Position numbers and translations under genes: made by a program | Source of the DNA: Cokeromyces recurvatus | Lineage: Eukaryota > Mucoromycota > Mucoromycetes > Mucorales > Mucoraceae | Assembly: GCF_025118155.1 (NCBI RefSeq) | Contig: NW_026251404.1 | Coordinates: 186,001 to 250,000 of the forward strand | Length of the DNA: 64,000 bases | Direction of reading: 5' to 3' | Shown here: positions 3,013 through 64,000 of the stretch, piece by piece | How the letters are laid out: each line of letters begins with the position of its first letter | Numbering within the stretch: the first letter of the stretch is position 1 | The notes under the pieces: generated by a model | What the model saw: only the letters and a program-made list of their open reading frames with translations | What the model was told of the DNA's origin: nothing | Database searches by the model: none

Positions 3013-5209
3013 ATGAAGGAAGTATTAAATAATACAATAAGCCAAGCTTATGAGATAGATAATGTATCAACTACAGTAGAAAGGGCCTTATTAGGTTCAA
3101 CTATTACTGTTGCTGCTGCTGCTGCTACTACTACTAAACTCAGCTCGTTAAATAGCATTGAGAATACAATGTTAGATTTGAACCCATTTTTTCATGATAA
3201 AAGGAAATGGGATGATTCGTTTACAGTTGCAGAGAAAAAGCAATTAACAGGAAATATTGTTAAAGCAGCAAGTAACTATTTATTTGTATTTAGAATAGAC
3301 TCTATTTGGGAGAGAAGCTTATTTTATTTTATTTTATTTTATTTTATTTTATTTTATTTTATTTATTTATTTATTTATTTATTTATTTTTTTTACTCACG
3401 CTTTATGTACATTGTAGAAGATAATGATGGTGAAACAAATGTTACTTTACAGAAAGAAGAATTTACTTTACCAAAGTTATCACATGAAGAAGAAGAAGAC
3501 AGCAGTCAGCAAGGTATTATAGAAATTTGATACTTTTTATAAAGAAAAAAAATTATTAATTTTTATAATAATTATTAGACAGTGACGATTTTATTAGTAT
3601 TTATACTAAAAAGCCAGGTAGGAAGCCAATGTCTAATGAAGAAAGTCTTTCAGACGTAAGTGTACAGATCTTTTTTTCTTGGATAATAAAAGTTGAAACA
3701 TACATATATAAATATGTATACAGATATATGTATAAATAAACATTTTGTTTTGCACCTTATGTATAGTTAGATCAAGATCCAAAAATTAAAAGAAAGGCTC
3801 AAAATAGAGCAGCACAGAGAGCATTTAGGGAAAGAAAGGAGCGTTATGTTAAAGAGCTTGAAGCAAGATTAAAACAAGTTCAAGATACCTATTTAATTGT
3901 TACAACTGAACTTGTACAGGAAAATCAACAACTCCGGGATGTTATACAAAGATTGGATGCAGAAAACTGTGTATTAAAAGGAAGTATTCCAGTCTCTTCT
4001 TCTTATCCGTTCAATGAGAATATCTCGAGTCAATTTCCAAATATGAACCCTCTTTTATCTATTACAAATCATCCATCATCCATTGCTTCTTTACCTTTTT
4101 GTCTTTTATCAACAACAGCTTCTTCTACTCTATCAAGTAATTCTATAAAAACATTAGCTAGTAATGATCCTTTACAGCCCTATTCTTCTATTTCATCATC
4201 TATTCATATGCAGAATAAAGACCATGACCTATCTTCCTCTATAACTAAATCATTACCAACTAGTCTACCAGTAAAAAAGATACTATCAAAACCATCTTCT
4301 TCTTCTTCTACCGCTACTACTACTACTACAAATCAACCATTAGAGTATACATTTTCAATTTCTACTCCTGCCTCTTTGAGGCCTACTGAAAGATCAAAAG
4401 CAACAAAACAACCATCAGAGCCTATAAAACTTGTTCAATTATATCCTCCAAATGAATCTCTACAGAGTATCAAGTCTAGAAGAAAAGGAAATAATAATGA
4501 TAATGCAACAGTCATGAAAAAGTCATTACCAAACAAAACAGTTTCAATAACTAATGGTACAAAAAAGGAAGTTATGAATCATAATAAAGAAGCAGATAAA
4601 ATTCATAATATGAATGATAATCAAATGTTTACCACCAACATAGCATCCTCTTCTAATAATATAATTCTGCAGGATAATACAAGTAGTATCAATCATGATA
4701 ACTTCACAACGCATTCACAATATAAAGGAATGCAACAACTTGAATCAAGCATGTTAGATTGTCATATTGATATAGAACGGCATTTGTTTTGTGAAAAATT
4801 ACGATATGAAGTCTGTGGGGGTCAATTGGATCCATTATCAGATCAAAAGGGAAAGTTAAATAAATCAATTCCAACACAACATGACCCCCTTCAGCCATTC
4901 TTGAGTAAAGAAGAAAACAAAGATAGTCTTAATGATGACAATCATACTCTAATCGATCGTTTATTGTTTAATAGTAATGATAATGAAGGCTTAATGATAA
5001 ATATCGAAAAGAAGAATAAAAGCCAACGATTATTAACATCAACTGAAATTTGGTATGCTTTAAATCAACATGGCCAGTTTCATAAATTTACTAGAGATGA
5101 GCTTTGTCAAGCTATAAAGAAATTAGCAAGATGTACTTACAACGGTCCTGTGATTAAAGAAGTTGATTTTTATCAAATCATATCTAAAATGGATGAAGGT
5201 CATCTTTAA
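3013..5209 (+). CDS. Yap1/Pap1-type (AP-1-like) bZIP transcription factor
   Basis: Four exons, 3013-3271, 3418-3513, 3579-3655 and 3767-5209, keep one frame and give 624 aa. Intron 1 holds TTTTA and TTTA repeats. A KKPGRKP element precedes the bZIP. The basic region (about residues 150-171) contains QNRAAQRAFRERKE, the hallmark of the fungal Pap1/Yap1 family, which binds TTACTAA-like sites and drives oxidative-stress and drug-resistance genes. A leucine zipper follows from about residue 172. The middle (about 225-450) is Ser/Thr/Asn-rich. Two cysteine-rich domains resemble those of Yap1: an n-CRD with FCEKLRYEVCGG (C486, C494) and a C-terminal c-CRD with C591 and C600 at the same nine-residue spacing as Yap1 C620/C629. 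The position matching Yap1 C598, directly before the conserved EIW, is Ser569. In Yap1 these cysteines control Crm1-dependent nuclear export. ATG 3013 is preferred; an in-frame ATG at 2977 would add 12 residues. Family assignment is firm; target genes are unknown. Confidence 0.9.
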
Positions 5210-10790: not shown

Positions 10791-10792
10791 TA

Positions 10793-10945
10793 TTGTATTT
10801 TTCAGCAAATAAGAGAAAATTTCAGAAAAAATAAGAGAAAATTATTGGACAAATAAGAGAAAATTATTGGATAAAATAAGAGAAAATTATTGAACAAATA
10901 AGAGAAAATTTTAGGTCAATTAAGAGAAAAAAAAATGGCAATTAG
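10793..10945 (+). repeat. Left terminal inverted repeat with subterminal motif array
   Basis: Contains about five copies of AATAAGAGAAAATT plus one AATTAAGAGAAA variant, in direct orientation, ending at GGCAATTAG. Such arrays are usually transposase-binding sites. Confidence 0.85.
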
Positions 10946-10970
10946 CAAAAAATTTACTTATACTTAAATC

Positions 10971-12353
10971 TCATAAGTTTTTCTCCAGGGCTAAACACTT
11001 TTCAAAGAATCTGAGAGAATGGCGAATCCAGCCCTGGCAGTCTTTCTTAGTTACTTTGGAGCAGGCATCCATTATTCTGGGTGTGAGTGTCTCACCAGTT
11101 TCGAAAGGGCTTCTTTTGACGCCATACTTCACCTTCGACCAGAATAGCTCAATTGGGTTTAGGAATGGTGAGTACGGCGGAAGATATGCACACTTATAGC
11201 CTCTGCTTTCTATTAAGTTTCTTACTGTAGCTGGCTTATGTATGGGAGCATTATCCATTACCAAGTAAAAGCCCTTCATATTATTTCGGTCAAGAACATC
11301 CATCACATTACTCAAGTAATTTAAATAGTGCTCAGTCCTAGTTCCAACCTTAGCTGTCGTTGTAACAATCTTCCCATCTATTCTTCTCTTCTTAGCTCCC
11401 GAAACTAATATTGGCTTTCTCAAAGAGATGTCAATAATGCCGGCGCTAGAGATGGCACCAAGAATGGTTATTGTGGTGCCTTTTGAAGCAGGGACAGTTG
11501 TTTTAGCAGGTTCTCCTATCTTGGACCAGCCACGAGTGCGTGTCATGTGTAAATTGAACCCTACTTCATCCAAAAAAACGCAATTATTCTCAAAGTCCAT
11601 ATTTTTATCAGCTAGCCATTGAAGGATGGTCTCCTTTCTCTTCTTAAGAGTTTCTTCCGAGTTTCTAGCAGATGAAATTTTCTCCAACTTCTTCATAGAT
11701 AGTGCACAGCTGGTTCTAAGATGTCTGTATACTGCGGATGGGCTCACGGAGAGACTTGGAAATTCTTTGAGCAACAACTCGTGTATTCCAGCTACAGTTG
11801 CAGTTGAACACTCATCAACAATGTCGGTAATAAACTTTGTGTGTTTTTCAGTAAGCTCAGAGACAGTTCCCATTTTGCGCCCTCTTTTTTTCTGTTGAGG
11901 TATTTCCCCTGTTTTCTGCCATTGCGATTTGAAACGGTAAGCTGATTTCTCATTTATTCCTGTTTTTAAAGCTGCATCTTTTACAGGAACCTGTTCAATT
12001 AACAGGGAAATAAGCTTGTTGATATCTTGCTGAGTGTACACACGTCTAGCATTGCTAGCGGCGTCTTTTTTTTCGGCCAGATCTCTGAGAGGCTTCTCTT
12101 CTTTCAAATCGCTCTCACTACCCTGTACATCAGCTTCATTTTCCTCCTTATCCGAGCTATTGCTGGCCTCATCACCCTCGTACCCTTCCTTCAGCTCCAT
12201 CGTCGCATCTTCATCTAACTCCATGGCTGATGCAGTGATGTTGTACTCCCACTTCTTTCTCATCATTGACATTACGCTGACAATGATTTCAGGTACAGCT
12301 TCAATGTCATCGTCGCGTAGAGAAATTTCGTTCATATCAAAGTCAATATCCAT
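10971..12353 (-). CDS. DD34E transposase (IS630/Tc1/mariner superfamily)
   Basis: A single uninterrupted frame of 460 aa with an ATG at 12353. Residues 1-100 are an unusual acidic extension. Residues about 105-160 form the helix-turn-helix region (DAALKTGINEKSAYRF), followed by a basic KKRGRKMG segment at about 155-162. A second HTH-like part lies around 165-215. The DDE catalytic domain runs from about 255 to 405, with D262 (VFLDEVGF), D367 (LVMDNAPIH) and E402 (PFLNPIELFW). There are 34 residues between the second D and the E, the classic Tc1 spacing. It cuts and pastes its own element at TA sites. No stop or frameshift is visible. Whether it is expressed is unknown. Confidence 0.93.
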   Translation of the reverse strand: MDIDFDMNEISLRDDDIEAVPEIIVSVMSMMRKKWEYNITASAMELDEDATMELKEGYEGDEASNSSDKEENEADVQGSESDLKEEKPLRDLAEKKDAASNARRVYTQQDINKLISLLIEQVPVKDAALKTGINEKSAYRFKSQWQKTGEIPQQKKRGRKMGTVSELTEKHTKFITDIVDECSTATVAGIHELLLKEFPSLSVSPSAVYRHLRTSCALSMKKLEKISSARNSEETLKKRKETILQWLADKNMDFENNCVFLDEVGFNLHMTRTRGWSKIGEPAKTTVPASKGTTITILGAISSAGIIDISLRKPILVSGAKKRRIDGKIVTTTAKVGTRTEHYLNYLSNVMDVLDRNNMKGFYLVMDNAPIHKPATVRNLIESRGYKCAYLPPYSPFLNPIELFWSKVKYGVKRSPFETGETLTPRIMDACSKVTKKDCQGWIRHSLRFFEKCLALEKNL

Positions 12354-12387
12354 TTTTTGTTAATAATAGTGAGAAAAGTGCTTTCTA

Positions 12388-12561
12388 CTAATTGCCATTT
12401 TTTTTCTCTTAATTTTTCTTGGACTTTCTCTTAATTGACCTAAAATTTTCTCTTATTTGTTCAATAATTTTCTCTTATTTTATCCAATAATTTTCTCTTA
12501 TTTGTCCAATAATTTTCTCTTATTTTTTCTGAAATTTTCTCTTATTTGCTGAAAAATACAA
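12388..12561 (-). repeat. Right terminal inverted repeat, one motif unit longer than the left
   Basis: Reverse complement of the left repeat with the same AAGAGAAAATT ladder. It contains one extra internal unit of about 22 bp next to TTAAGAGAAA, so the two ends are not the same length. Confidence 0.85.
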
Positions 12562-12568
12562 TAATTAT

Positions 12569-56454: not shown

Positions 56455-58982
56455 TTATGCTGCACCAAAATGAGCTTTGTAGAAAGAAGGAGGTAAATTT
56501 TCAAGAACACTGAACTTGGGTCTTTCAATCATCACCATTTGATTTTCACCAATGAATCCAGCATAAAGGATTTGTTGATATTGATACGAAATTGAAATAA
56601 CTGGTAAATCTTGATTATTGGGTTGAGATTTTATTTCATTACTTGTACTATTCTTTCGCTTTCCCAATTGTTTTTCAACAGGTTTATCTTCAATATCTAC
56701 AAGACACATATATCCACTTCCATATAAGATCATTTTATTTTTATCTGCTGGATTATACATGACATTACGAATACGATCTCTTTGTTCTAAAAGTCGTGAT
56801 TTAGACATATCCTGATGTAAATTGGACCAGTTTGTTAATCGTTTATGTTCAACGTCATAAATATAAAATGCGTTTGTAGCTAAAGCAACAAGAAGTTCAT
56901 TAGGTCTGAAATCATTAAAAGATAAAGTTGTATGAGGAATAGATCCTCGAGGCAGTTGAAGATGATGCTAATAATAATAATACTGTGAGCAAATAAAGGT
57001 CAAATAGGTTTCTTTTTCTTTTTTTTTTTTTACCTTTAAATTATCCAAATTAAACACATGAATACGATTTTCATCATCACCTGTTGCTAACCATTGTCCG
57101 TCAGAACTCACACATAATGATGTAACAGTAGCAATTGCTTGATCGTCTGAACTATTTCCTTCGCTATCTAAACCACGATGATGACCAAATTCTCGTAAAA
57201 CTTCAAATGCACCTTCTTCCCATTTTGTAAGGTCTACAATAAGAATACGTGATTCAGGGGTAATAATAATTAATTTATCAGACCCAGGTGTAAATAAGAC
57301 ATGATGTCCTCCAGGTGCAGCATTCTGTGTTGCTAAATAATTATTTAATTCTCTATCAAATGATCTTTGTTTCTTTACTTCTAATTGTCCAGGTTCAGAC
57401 TATATACATGTGTATGAGTAATTTTTGTATATACATAAATATTTAATGAAAGAAAACACTTACACCTTGACTCACTCTAAAGAGTCTAACATTTTCAATA
57501 TCAGCAACAGCAATCCAATTTGCATCCTCAGATAAAGCACTTGAAGTAATATTACAATCAGGTTTTAATTTAAGTTCCAAAGCTAATTGATGAGGTTCAA
57601 CCATCTCGGGTAAAGCAGGTTGTTTAGCTGAAAGGTCTACATTAGTAGCTTTACCTAATCTCCAAAGTGAAATAGAATTAAAGAAAGTGGCCATAATTAA
57701 TTTATGAGATTTGGACATGGATACAATATATTTATGAGGGAAAGGAGGTAATCTGTTTTGAATAAGTTTAGGGAACTCCACTGCAGGACAAGCAATTAGT
57801 TCAACATCAACACCACCAGATACAATCGAGTTAATCTTGGGCCTTTCATCTAATGCAAGTGCTCTAATATCATGCCAATGGTATCGACGGCTACCCACAT
57901 TAATCCAGTCATTAACTATATCACCCGTTTTCTTTTTTGTTATACGTCGGAAGCATGTTATTTTACGATCTACACCTGCAGAAAATACTTGATTGCCATC
58001 TTTGGAGGCAGCAAGACAAAGAACATCAGCACCATGAGCACGAAACGTTTGTTTTGCTGTACCCATAGTAACATCCCAGAATGTAATGGTACCAAGTGAA
58101 TCTCCAGAAACAATTGTATTATTTCTATGAAGAAAGAGAGAGGCAAAGAAAGAAAGAAAAAAAAAGGAGAGGAAGAGGTATTATGATCTGAATTATAAAT
58201 TTGTATATTTATAAATAGATAGGTTGTGATTACTTACTGAAGTGCTGCAACTGCCCATACTAATGTTTGTTCTTTACGTTTTTTAGTTACTGTCATTCGT
58301 TGAATTGTACGTCCAGTATGAGGATTCCAAGTACGTATAGCTGAATCTGATCCACCAGAAACAATAAATTCATCATTAGGAGCCCAAGCAACTGATAATA
58401 CACGACCTTTTTGAGGTTCAAAGGTACGAATATATTCAAGGTTCCCATCTGCAATATCGAATAATCGAACACAACCATCTTCACAACCTGCGGCTAGTCG
58501 AGTGCCTTTACTATTAACAGCCAAGCACCAAACAGCACCACCATTTGTATCACAAGATTTCTATCAAAAAAAAAATCAAAAACTAAATAAATAAATAAAT
58601 AAATAAAGATAATTGTACTTACTTTAACAGTCATTGTTGTTGTATCCCATTCCATGATATAAGGGTTTAATCCAGAAGAAAAGAGACGAGGAGGTTGTGC
58701 CAATAAGATTTCCAACTCCTTAGCAAGATCTTCAGGATCGTCTTCGGGATCAGGATTGGCAATGACATTTTGATGAGCCCAAACAACACTTTCAACTGAA
58801 AGATCTTCACCACCTGGTAGGGTTTTAACAAGTCGATAATTATGAGTTGGATCCCAAATCTCAATGTTACCGTTGGCACGACCCACTGCTAATCGAGTCT
58901 CCTTGACTGTTGCTGGAGTAAAATCAAGTGTGTTAATAGCTGCTGGCTGGTATTCTACAAATCGACAACGATGAACTTCCAT
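56455..58982 (-). CDS. UTP4: UTP4/Cirhin, t-UTP component of the SSU processome
   Basis: Five exons, 58982-58623, 58560-58238, 58124-57464, 57399-57034 and 56967-56455, give 740 aa. It begins MEVHRCRFVEYQPAAINTLD, the conserved Utp4 start, and continues with two WD40 beta-propellers: RLAVGRANGNIEIWDP, RLAAGCEDGCVRLFD, FIVSGGSDSAIRTW, NTIVSGDSLGTITFWDV, then a second half with SLWRLGKATNV and WLATGDDENRIHVFNL. Utp4 belongs to the t-UTP subcomplex that binds nascent 35S pre-rRNA first and supports Pol I transcription. The length agrees with yeast (776) and human (686). Its promoter is confined to about 200 bp because of the palindromic element at 59184. Confidence 0.95.
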
Positions 58983-59183
58983 GGTGTTAAAGGAGATGAT
59001 CGATGAATTATATATTTTTTTAAAAAAAAAAATAAAAAAAAAAATAATAATAATAATAATAATGAAAGGTATACTATGCGGTAAGTTAATATGATGATAC
59101 AAAAAAATAAAAATCTTGTTAAAAATTTGTGCAGAAAAAAAAACGTGACGATTAAAGTGACAGTTGATTAACAGAAAGTAGTA
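58983..59183. promoter_or_regulatory. UTP4 promoter and leader, truncated by the palindrome
   Basis: About 200 bp of A/T-rich DNA with an (AAT)n run before the ATG. It ends at the TA that borders the fold-back element. Confidence 0.45.
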
Positions 59184-59225
59184 CTGGGTTTTGAATAAAT
59201 ATTTGGACACAAATTTATTTTTTTC

Positions 59226-59395
59226 TGAGACGATTTTTGATAAAGACAGAGACAAAATGAAAAAGTACGCTGATAACAAAAATCAGCCAACGAGACACTA
59301 ATTCTTTTTACTGAGATAATTTCCACAAGGGATGAGACAAATCAGGACTAAAATGAAATACAGTTAATTGAGAACGTTGTTTGAGACGAATTTTT
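59226..59395 (+). repeat. Subterminal GAGAC motif array (left arm)
   Basis: About six or seven spaced copies of (C/T)GAGAC or variants: CTGAGACGA, AGAGACAAA, CGAGACAC, CTGAGATAA, ATGAGACAAA, TTGAGAACG and TTGAGACGAA. The mirror array lies at about 63575-63744. It parallels the motif ladder in the ends of the intact transposon and may bind a transposase. Confidence 0.65.
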
Positions 59396-59950
59396 GAATA
59401 AAAAGATGATATGCTATATCTTATTTATGAAAGTTTTTTTTTTCCTTCTTTCAGGCACCATTCCCGAAAAGTGTCTGCGTACTTAATCCAGCCAATACAG
59501 TCTTTTATTGTAAAGTATCAGACTTATTGAGTTCGCATGCTTGGCTGGAGGATGACAGTGTTAGGTCAGATAAAACATGGTTGACATGGGAATTATATGT
59601 ACAATAGGATACTATGAATACCAAACACTGTAGATCTTAATTTAGTAGCTAGTGATACTTGCTTAGTGGATGCTAACACAGCTAAAGGCACCAAAAATCA
59701 ACAGAGGAAACTACACACAGCAGAGGATATACGTACCCTGCAAGAGAATACATACCCTGCAGAGATACATGCGTTCACTATTTCACACACACACACACAC
59801 ACACACACAAACCTCATATACAACGATAGCATCACTTAATATTAACGATAGTCAAATGTGTAATAAAAATTTTATTGAAGAAAAAAAGAAAAAAAAAATA
59901 AAAAAAAAGGCAGAGGGCAGAACCAAAAAGTTAGTTCTTGTTATTAGACT

Positions 59951-61123
59951 TTACACATACTTACACTTGATATGATAGGTGACCTTTAAAGTATTTGCGT
60001 CTTTGTATTTTTTAAAATAGCCATTGGCTCGTCCTTCATCATAGCACTCTCGCCAGTTCATACGCTTGTGGGTTTTCATGTATTTAGTGACGAATTCAGT
60101 TACCACATCTAAGTCATGCTCCCGCTTCTCTGGCTCAATTATAGAAAAAACTTCGACTTCTTGTCTTCCAACTAAAGTGTTGGGCTAACGTCTTCTGGTA
60201 GATCTAAAGGCTGCTTCATGAGTGATTCAGAAGAAGAACATTGTCGTTTATATTTGTGAAGGCAGGTCTCTGTATACATGATGCCCACACTTACATACTC
60301 ACGTGCCCGCGCAGAGGATGGCCCATCTTCGTCGATTGCTTCCAGAATTCTTTTGAACTGCTTTTGCATTTTTGTGCGCAGACATCAGTTAGCACATCAA
60401 TAATTGCTTCATGGGGACGGACTTCTCGGTCAAGTACTTCTTTAGCTACCAAATATAGCAGCTTGACTGTCGTATCGTCATTTCTTAATTCCAGGCCAAG
60501 AAGAGAGCATTTTTGCTTCATAAAAACATATTCTAACGCAACTAGAGGATCAAGAGGTTCGTTTAAATGACCATCTACAGTGGAAGGTGTCATAATCAAA
60601 TGTTGACTTGTCCAGTAGTCACTTCACTTGGTAACTTCTTCATAAATGGGCCCTTGTCAGTGTTTTGAAAATCCTTAGCCATCTCTGTCCTTGCCATTTT
60701 TATGCAGAAAGTCAATACAATTGGTTCAATGTTGTTGTGTTGTAGTTTTCATAAATGTGGTTACAATACTTTTGTAAGCGATGGATGAAAGGCTTGTCAA
60801 CAACATTTTGAATCTCCACGATTATGGGTGGAAGATAATTTGGACAGCGGTCATGATTGGTACATAGAGAACATCTAAGCGACAACCGTCTACCCACTCA
60901 CCGCTATGCGATGCATATTGGTCTTTAGCGTGGTCACCTAGATACTTTTATTATTAATGACACAAACTTTGGCTTTTTCAGTTTAAGCAACATCTACAAC
61001 TTACCAATAACTCTTGAAACAATGAGGTTTATTACACGCTTGTCTTGAAGTATTGCTTTTGACATGAGATCTGTTCCCGGCTTATGTTCTGATGGTATTG
61101 TAACACTTAAAAGATCATAGTCT
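59951..61123 (-). pseudogene. Decayed gene with PD-(D/E)XK-like motif, left-arm copy
   Basis: Mirror image of 61847-63019; all breaks are shared. See that entry for the content. Confidence 0.6.
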
Positions 61124-61259
61124 CTAAAAAAAATATAAGAGTTAATTTATCTTAAAAAAGATTAAAATTTGTTTTATTACCAGCAGCAATATAAGATATA
61201 ACAAGTAAGATTTGAGATTGATGTTTAAAAAACGGGAGGGTTGAAAAGAAAAATCGTTA

Positions 61260-61700
61260 AGGTTGAAAAGAAAAAAGGTAAGATTATCTTAAAAATTGTT
61301 AAGGAGACATTAAAAATTGTTAAGATTGAATCGTTAAGGTTACCTTAAAGATCGGTAAGATTGAATCGTTAAGGTTACCTTAAAGATCGGTAAGATTGAA
61401 TCGTTAAGATTACCTTAAAAATCGTTAAGATTGAATCGTTAAGGAGACATTAAAGATCGTTGAGATTGAATCGTTAAGGAGACATTAAAAATCGGTAAGA
61501 TTAAAGAGAAAAATCGTTAAAATTACCTTAACGATTCAATCTCAACGATCTTTAATGTCTCCTTAACGATTCAATCTTAACGATTTTTAAGGTAATCTTA
61601 ACGATTCAATCTTACCGATCTTTAAGGTAACCTTAACGATTCAATCTTAACAATTTTTAATGTCTCCTTAACAATTTTTAAGATAATCTTACCTTTTTTC
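61260..61700. repeat. Central array of about 35-bp units in inverted orientation
   Basis: Units resemble GTTAAGRTTACCTTAAARATCG followed by KTAAGATTGAATC, alternating with a GGAGACATTAAA variant. The left side has one more unit than the right. Inside single units TTAAGGTTACCTTAA is itself palindromic. The single-copy spacer is 61480-61525. Confidence 0.8.
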
Positions 61701-61846
61701 TTTTCAACCTTAACGATTTTTCTTTTCAACCCTCCCGTTTTTTAAACATCAATCTCAAATCTTACTTGTTATATCTTATATTGCTGCTGGTAATAAAACA
61801 AATTTTAATCTTTTTTAAGATAAATTAACTCTTATATTTTTTTTAG

Positions 61847-63019
61847 AGACTATGATCTTTTAAGTGTTACAATACCATCAGAACATAAGCCGGGAACAGA
61901 TCTCATGTCAAAAGCAATACTTCAAGACAAGCGTGTAATAAACCTCATTGTTTCAAGAGTTATTGGTAAGTTGTAGATGTTGCTTAAACTGAAAAAGCCA
62001 AAGTTTGTGTCATTAATAATAAAAGTATCTAGGTGACCACGCTAAAGACCAATATGCATCGCATAGCGGTGAGTGGGTAGACGGTTGTCGCTTAGATGTT
62101 CTCTATGTACCAATCATGACCGCTGTCCAAATTATCTTCCACCCATAATCGTGGAGATTCAAAATGTTGTTGACAAGCCTTTCATCCATCGCTTACAAAA
62201 GTATTGTAACCACATTTATGAAAACTACAACACAACAACATTGAACCAATTGTATTGACTTTCTGCATAAAAATGGCAAGGACAGAGATGGCTAAGGATT
62301 TTCAAAACACTGACAAGGGCCCATTTATGAAGAAGTTACCAAGTGAAGTGACTACTGGACAAGTCAACATTTGATTATGACACCTTCCACTGTAGATGGT
62401 CATTTAAACGAACCTCTTGATCCTCTAGTTGCGTTAGAATATGTTTTTATGAAGCAAAAATGCTCTCTTCTTGGCCTGGAATTAAGAAATGACGATACGA
62501 CAGTCAAGCTGCTATATTTGGTAGCTAAAGAAGTACTTGACCGAGAAGTCCGTCCCCATGAAGCAATTATTGATGTGCTAACTGATGTCTGCGCACAAAA
62601 ATGCAAAAGCAGTTCAAAAGAATTCTGGAAGCAATCGACGAAGATGGGCCATCCTCTGCGCGGGCACGTGAGTATGTAAGTGTGGGCATCATGTATACAG
62701 AGACCTGCCTTCACAAATATAAACGACAATGTTCTTCTTCTGAATCACTCATGAAGCAGCCTTTAGATCTACCAGAAGACGTTAGCCCAACACTTTAGTT
62801 GGAAGACAAGAAGTCGAAGTTTTTTCTATAATTGAGCCAGAGAAGCGGGAGCATGACTTAGATGTGGTAACTGAATTCGTCACTAAATACATGAAAACCC
62901 ACAAGCGTATGAACTGGCGAGAGTGCTATGATGAAGGACGAGCCAATGGCTATTTTAAAAAATACAAAGACGCAAATACTTTAAAGGTCACCTATCATAT
63001 CAAGTGTAAGTATGTGTAA
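61847..63019 (+). pseudogene. Decayed gene with PD-(D/E)XK-like motif, right-arm copy
   Basis: After a T-rich acceptor (61844-61846) an exon reads DYDLLSVTIPSEHKPGTDLM and RVINLIVSRVIG. A 67-bp intron (61966-62032) leads in phase to DHAKDQYASHSGEWVDGCRL. LDVLYVP, then PPIIVEIQ, fits the D...ExQ/K layout of Rpn/PD-(D/E)XK-type nucleases. Further blocks are MARTEMAKDFQNTDKGPFMK, DGHLNEPLDPLVALEYVF, FKRILEAIDEDGPSSARARE and MNWRECYDEGRANGYFKKY. At least four frameshifts interrupt them (near 62110, 62250, 62365 and 62595). The first exon is missing at the palindrome centre. I believe this is a multi-copy family in early-diverging fungi, but that is from memory. Confidence 0.6.
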
Positions 63020-63788
63020 AGTCTAATAACAAGAACTAACTTTTTGGTTCTGCCCTCTGCCTTTTTTTTTATTTTTTTTTTCTTTTTTTCTTCAATAAAA
63101 TTTTTATTACACATTTGACTATCGTTAATATTAAGTGATGCTATCGTTGTATATGAGGTTTGTGTGTGTGTGTGTGTGTGTGTGTGAAATAGTGAACGCA
63201 TGTATCTCTGCAGGGTATGTATTCTCTTGCAGGGTACGTATATCCTCTGCTGTGTGTAGTTTCCTCTGTTGATTTTTGGTGCCTTTAGCTGTGTTAGCAT
63301 CCACTAAGCAAGTATCACTAGCTACTAAATTAAGATCTACAGTGTTTGGTATTCATAGTATCCTATTGTACATATAATTCCCATGTCAACCATGTTTTAT
63401 CTGACCTAACACTGTCATCCTCCAGCCAAGCATGCGAACTCAATAAGTCTGATACTTTACAATAAAAGACTGTATTGGCTGGATTAAGTACGCAGACACT
63501 TTTCGGGAATGGTGCCTGAAAGAAGGAAAAAAAAAACTTTCATAAATAAGATATAGCATATCATCTTTTTATTCAAAAATTCGTCTCAAACAACGTTCTC
63601 AATTAACTGTATTTCATTTTAGTCCTGATTTGTCTCATCCCTTGTGGAAATTATCTCAGTAAAAAGAATTAGTGTCTCGTTGGCTGATTTTTGTTATCAG
63701 CGTACTTTTTCATTTTGTCTCTGTCTTTATCAAAAATCGTCTCAGAAAAAAATAAATTTGTGTCCAAATATTTATTCAAAACCCAGTA

Positions 63789-64000
63789 GTAAGCAAAGGT
63801 CCCTTAAAGACTAAAATGATTAATAGATTAGAGCTGAATTGAGAAAGACAGGATCAATTTTTCCCTTCTTTTTTTTTACATGACTACTGGTTTTAGAATG
63901 AGAGGGGTTTTTGTATAAATTTAAAAAGTAGATAACTGAGGTTTATGTTGACATAATGTTTATGATGAGAACAAATTGAAAAAAAAAGAAAGATTATATC
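63789..64000. other. Flank beyond the palindrome
   Basis: AT-rich single-copy sequence. No gene can be called in the last 212 bp. Confidence 0.4.

What the first reader, a model, noticed from the sequence alone, without database searches (positions are those of the whole stretch)
59184..63786. Giant near-perfect palindrome that behaves like a fold-back transposon
Two arms of about 2.3 kb are reverse complements with no difference I could find outside one 35-bp unit, with a 46-bp spacer and TA at both borders. Arms this long and this identical are rare because they are unstable in replication, so it is either very young, maintained by gene conversion, or an assembly artefact. If transcribed through, it would fold into a 2-kb hairpin RNA, an obvious Dicer substrate in a fungus with RNAi (inference).
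Basis: partly seen in the sequence, partly recalled or inferred. Interest (0 to 1): 0.75.

Follow-up and report, generated by a model that had tools for sequence, protein, structure and literature searches.

The report
Palindromic Tc1/mariner-type transposon derivative
A 4.6-kb stretch of a mould's genome reads almost the same on both strands, probably because one half of a decayed jumping gene, with a broken passenger gene inside it, was copied backwards onto the other half; similar changes are known from fly transposons, but this case is unusually complete.

Summary
Arms 59182-61479 (2298 bp) and 61526-63788 (2263 bp) have no mismatch; they differ by one 35-bp unit, with a 46-bp spacer. The genome is the deposited Cokeromyces recurvatus assembly. 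No other copy of the arms was found in it. The 29-bp terminus belongs to a family of 10 detected termini, control 0. One member carries transposase pieces matching Tc1/mariner-type (DDE_3) loci, and the palindrome's own arms hold a short transposase C-terminal relic. Each arm also holds the same broken copy of a mucoralean gene, possibly of PD-(D/E)XK fold, with five frame changes. The gene therefore broke before the duplication, or the arms were homogenised. Best reading: a non-autonomous Tc1/mariner-type derivative given a fold-back structure by an inverted template switch inside a 35-bp minisatellite. The Drosophila transposon Galileo is the nearest published parallel seen. Movement, hairpin RNA and single-molecule proof remain untested. 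New variant of a known kind.

The parts
59182..63788 (.). whole palindromic element including the flanking TA on each side (59184-63786 without TA)
59182..61479 (+). left arm, 2298 bp
61480..61525 (.). 46-bp asymmetric spacer; its first 24 nt continue the phase of the left 35-bp array
61526..63788 (-). right arm, 2263 bp, reverse complement of the left arm less one 35-bp unit
59182..59210 (+). 29-bp terminal sequence TACTGGGTTTTGAATAAATATTTGGACAC, left
63760..63788 (-). 29-bp terminal sequence, right
59179..59183 (+). TAGTA at left border (TA = presumed target duplication)
63787..63791 (+). TAGTA at right border
59227..59387 (+). five subterminal direct GAGAC motifs (starts 59227, 59249, 59292, 59334, 59383); mirrored at 63583-63743
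63465..63524 (+). transposase C-terminal relic, read outward in the right arm
59446..59505 (-). the same relic in the left arm
   Evidence: mirror of the above by the exact palindrome; frame listed
61851..63019 (+). broken mucoralean gene (possible PD-(D/E)XK fold), right arm, five frame changes; limits approximate
59951..61119 (-). the same broken gene, left arm; limits approximate
61253..61479 (+). 35-bp minisatellite, left arm
61526..61717 (-). 35-bp minisatellite, right arm, one unit fewer

Best explanation
It is a non-autonomous Tc1/mariner-type DNA transposon derivative that has taken on a fold-back structure. One half was copied in inverted orientation onto the other half and replaced it. 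That half consists of the terminus, GAGAC motifs, the last piece of a transposase, an already broken gene (possibly PD-(D/E)XK), and part of a 35-bp minisatellite. The likely step is a template switch inside the minisatellite during gap repair or replication: the arms stop exactly at the 10-bp word ATCGTTAAGG, which opens several of the repeat segments, and the left array continues in phase into the spacer. Copying ended at the opposite terminus, which has the same 29 bp. The two ends are expected to be recognised in trans by a Tc1/mariner transposase cutting at TA. Shown: anatomy, family of ends, transposase link of that family, gene damage shared by both arms. Inferred: the template switch, its direction, mobility in trans, recent date (or homogenisation of the arms). 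This explanation leaves open whether the element moved after becoming a palindrome.
For: Exact anatomy. Terminus: 10 termini in 28 Mb, control 0 and 0; 4 of the 10 were not used to build the pattern, one of these (C24) having been seen. The C45 member is a 608-bp element with both ends. The C4:480437 member carries pieces matching DDE_3 loci (helix-turn-helix piece best E about 2e-13, FIDESGFNLH piece best E about 4e-6, both against the 30 fetched DDE_3 loci only). The genome has at least 184 DDE_3 matches. Transposase C-terminal relic in the arms: 29.6 bits against a best of 24.6 in 300 shuffles, 55% identical over 20 aa to the C24 member, which has the same kind of terminus. Five GAGAC in 215 bp on one strand; none of 11,781 comparison windows has more than two. 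The gene damage is in both arms because the arms are identical there. Breaks at a repeated 10-bp word, which opens 5 of the 7 ATCGTTAA segments of the left array. Galileo precedent (PMC4168063, passages).
Against: No second copy of the arms was found, so no transposition of the palindrome itself is documented. No element with both these termini and an intact transposase was found. For the 30 DDE_3 loci fetched, the best TA-flanked inverted repeat printed was never this terminus, though that script was not a search for it. The subterminal DNA of the arm is most like the N-terminal end of the C45 member (z 4.7) and not its C-terminal end (z 0.9), although the relic in the arm is C-terminal; which end was duplicated is therefore unsettled. 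Exact GAGAC is near only 4 of the 8 other termini. The relic is short, with no Pfam hit. The 21-bp core search was noisy (11 matches, 4 in the control). A bare TA is weak evidence in DNA this rich in A and T.
Confidence: 0.72

Rival explanations
1. A narrower form of the best explanation (the two overlap, so the odds do not add): made in place and never moved as a palindrome. A resident Tc1/mariner-type derivative was converted on this spot by gap repair after excision or a break, the second arm being copied from the first and rejoined at the terminus. The TA borders are those of the older insertion.
For: No second copy of the arms; both termini identical, so rejoining by their homology is possible; gap filling is given as the main route for single-copy Pack-TIRs in animals (PMC8277862, passages).
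Against: None strong; it differs from the alternative only in whether the element jumped afterwards.
Confidence: 0.45
2. Assembly artefact: a chimeric or mis-joined read produced a false inverted copy, or a real but diverged second arm was overwritten by consensus.
For: Arms are identical to the base over 2263 bp; long palindromes are hard to assemble; no reads are available here.
Against: Both breaks fall exactly at the terminus of a dispersed family next to TA, and the two outer flanks are different DNA. The arms differ by a tandem unit and enclose an asymmetric spacer. A missed-adapter fold-back read would give mirrored flanks (own knowledge).
Confidence: 0.1
3. The arms are old and kept identical by arm-to-arm gene conversion, as in sex-chromosome palindromes.
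For: Gene damage is shared by both arms, and the only difference lies near the centre.
Against: A recent duplication explains the same facts with fewer steps; no allele or relative was available to date it.
Confidence: 0.2
4. A hairpin-RNA locus selected for silencing: read-through transcripts fold into a 2.2-kb dsRNA that Dicer cuts, silencing the terminus family or the gene family in the arms.
For: Two Piwi-domain loci in the genome; inverted-repeat transgenes silence through dcl-2 and ago-1 in Mucor circinelloides (PMC3720535, passages).
Against: No transcript data. The nearest relative of the arm gene found in this genome is 49% identical in the compared piece. Of the loci fetched up to then, only those of C12 and C62 share words of 21 nt or more with the left arm, simple sequence excluded.
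Confidence: 0.12

Closest known systems
Galileo (P superfamily, Drosophila), extended-TIR copies
   Same: TIRs extended by recruiting inner sequence, including the last piece of the transposase ORF, into both ends; foreign inserts shared by both TIRs; tandem repeats inside TIRs (PMC4168063, passages).
   Different: Galileo is of the P superfamily with 7- or 8-bp target duplications and many copies; this has Tc1/mariner-type ends at TA, one copy found, and arms that take in everything but 46 bp.
Fold-back (FB-like) elements such as Tetris of Drosophila virilis
   Same: Long inverted arms with a tandem-repeat domain and no conserved ORF (PMC4079207, passages).
   Different: Tetris has 8-10-bp target duplications and its authors suggest Mutator; here the ends are Tc1/mariner-type and a broken gene fills much of the arms.
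Tc1/mariner-type elements and a short internal-deletion derivative of the same genome (C45, 608 bp)
   Same: A close form of the 29-bp terminus at both ends, GAGAC motifs at one end, TA at one border and TG at the other.
   Different: C45 has short TIRs and two different halves; here the two halves are the same sequence.
Pack-TIRs (gene fragments captured between TIRs)
   Same: A host-type gene piece lies between transposon ends; template switching is the proposed route (PMC8277862, passages).
   Different: The captured piece is present twice, as a mirror image, and its source locus was not found in this genome (best relative 49%).

Membership tests
Tc1/mariner superfamily (as a non-autonomous member) | Terminal inverted repeats shared with elements that carry a Tc1/mariner-type transposase | tested here: met
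   Terminus found at C4:480437 with 2 mismatches to the degenerate pattern; that element has pieces matching DDE_3 loci
Tc1/mariner superfamily (as a non-autonomous member) | TA target-site duplication | tested here: inconclusive
   TA at both borders, but flanks share TAGTA and no empty site is available
Tc1/mariner superfamily (as a non-autonomous member) | DDE/DDD transposase or its remains inside | tested here: inconclusive
   Only a 20-aa C-terminal relic, 29.6 bits against a shuffle maximum of 24.6; no Pfam hit for it
Fold-back element (structural class) | Inverted arms making up nearly the whole element | tested here: met
   Arms 2298 and 2263 bp around 46 bp
Fold-back element (structural class) | Present in more than one copy, as sign of mobility | tested here: not met
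   No other copy of the arms found in this genome (the search skips very common words); only the ends recur. So only the structure is claimed, not family membership
Galileo / P superfamily | 7-8-bp target duplication and P-type transposase | tested here: not met
   Flanks share 5 bp at most; the related transposase pieces match DDE_3 loci; no P-type search was made
PD-(D/E)XK-type proteins (the broken gene in the arms) | Endonuclease-like core in an intact relative | tested here: inconclusive

The most novel reading that the evidence does not exclude
Tc1/mariner ends in Mucorales carry complete multi-kilobase palindromes, formed by snap-back template switching in a minisatellite. Such palindromes turn a DNA transposon into a natural hairpin-RNA source that silences its own terminus family, so a dying transposon supplies the trigger for its own control.
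Probability: 0.1. Interest if true: 0.7.

Novelty: new variant of a known kind. Interest (0 to 1): 0.42.

Why it matters
[quoted passage not shown] A Tc1/mariner-type case in an early-diverging fungus would suggest that TIR extension, up to a full palindrome, is open to other cut-and-paste elements. Its perfectly matching arms and repeat-word breakpoints make the template-switch step testable. In a fungus with Argonautes, it also gives a natural long inverted repeat on which to test small-RNA production.

Full report
What is there. The window lies at G000:C10:186001-250000 in a 28.05-Mb assembly of 64 contigs. A protein of contig C4 is 100% identical to a Cokeromyces recurvatus record whose longest contig has the length of C4, 810,766. 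Another C. recurvatus record, P0022 (BX663DRAFT_553206), has the contig length of C10, 596,925, and its sequence contains the arm gene's pieces. The organism is thus C. recurvatus (Mucorales), and the palindrome sits in the deposited assembly, partly annotated as a gene.

Left arm 59182-61479 and right arm 61526-63788 pair without a mismatch over 2263 bp; the left has one extra 35-bp unit; the spacer is 46 bp. Symmetry ends sharply at both borders, at TA, inside a shared TAGTA. The left flank is the start of UTP4: its ATG is at 58982 on the minus strand, and it matches solved Utp4 chains at E 1.4e-15. It is about 200 bp from the element.

The ends are transposon ends. The 29-bp terminus matches at 4 places with up to 3 mismatches, two of them the palindrome's own, control 0 and 0. 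A 21-bp core search with 3 mismatches is noisy (11 matches, 4 in the control), but among its matches was a 608-bp element on C45 with both ends. A degenerate pattern built from the five end sequences then in hand (palindrome, C12, C62, both ends of C45) gave 10 termini, control 0 and 0: the palindrome (2), C45 (2), C12, C62, C4 (2), C10:139535 and C24. Four of the ten were not used to build it. The pattern begins with TA but tolerates mismatches; one terminus (C45 left) has TG. I read the inner sequence of all 8 outside termini. Exact GAGAC repeats lie near 4 of 8. The first 215 bp of the palindrome arm have five on one strand, against at most two in 11,781 comparison stretches of the same window.

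Which superfamily. The C4:480437 element carries, inward of its terminus, a helix-turn-helix piece and a piece with FIDESGFNLH. Both match DDE_3 transposase loci of this genome (best E about 2e-13 and 4e-6 in a search of the 30 fetched loci). On Pfam the same pieces gave nothing above cut-off; a piece of the C24 element has a weak HTH_29 match below the curated cut-off (E 8.5e-4). The two C4 copies share about 1.6 kb of alignment at 91-95% identity at different sites. The palindrome's own arms hold, about 260 bp from each end, a 20-aa stretch read outward, KDCIGWIKYADTFREWCLKE. It is 55% identical to a stretch in the C24 element, and a 30-aa piece around it scores 29.6 bits against a best of 24.6 in 300 shuffles. 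In L060 the matching stretch lies just downstream of the DDE_3 match, hence C-terminal. The arm's subterminal DNA is nevertheless more like the N-terminal end of C45 (z 4.7) than its C-terminal end (z 0.9). Which end was doubled is therefore open; both may carry GAGAC motifs.

How it formed. Both arms stop at ATCGTTAAGG, which opens 5 of the 7 ATCGTTAA segments of the left array. The left array keeps its phase about 24 nt into the spacer (a repeat copy reaches 61503 at 85%). The simplest course is a nascent strand that ran through the array and switched to the opposite strand at this word. It then copied the left half back to its terminus and was rejoined at the identical right terminus, or moved afterwards as a unit. 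The missing unit is ordinary slippage between two identical units. Steps shown: sequence anatomy. Steps inferred: switch, direction, rejoining, later movement. Published parallels, all seen as passages: Galileo copies with the final piece of the transposase ORF in both TIRs (PMC4168063), gap filling and template switching at TIR elements (PMC8277862), and Tetris (PMC4079207).

Function. A long transcript through it would be a hairpin. The genome has 2 Piwi-domain loci, and Mucor circinelloides silences from inverted-repeat transgenes (PMC3720535, passages). Nothing here shows transcription. Trans targets look few: a whole-genome DNA search with the left arm up to 61200 found, outside the two arms, only three 34-40-bp A-rich matches (that search misses short matches such as the C12 terminus, which one search found).

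Verdict. A real feature of the assembly, most likely a real Tc1/mariner-type derivative with fold-back structure; an unusually complete example of TIR extension, and new for this superfamily and fungal group as far as the searches named in Tried and rejected can tell.

Noticed in passing
window 10791-12563: Tc1/mariner-type element with a DDE_3 match in a 462-aa open frame (C10:197085-197354, minus) and 162-bp inverted ends at 93%; several other loci in the genome have DDE_3 matches with the same frame length.
   Followed up: partly
L046 (C1:939748-943254): A gene of the same family as the arms' broken gene matches on both sides of a DDE_3 element (405-656 and 3364-3453), so a Tc1/mariner-type copy seems to have landed in it.
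   Followed up: no
L075:2263-2960 and L077:403-1140: The transposons with this terminus on C4 run into a stretch of which part also turns up in L046, L056, L062 and L064, so their second end may be lost or replaced.
   Followed up: partly
window 61851-63019 (+) and its mirror: At least two of the five frame changes look like 5-bp tandem duplications (by eye), the same length as the TAGTA shared by the element's flanks; chance or a trace of past insertions is open.
   Followed up: no
L076 (C10:137600-139700): Another terminus of the family on the same contig, with two GAGACGA motifs and no transposase remains recognised by eye.
   Followed up: partly
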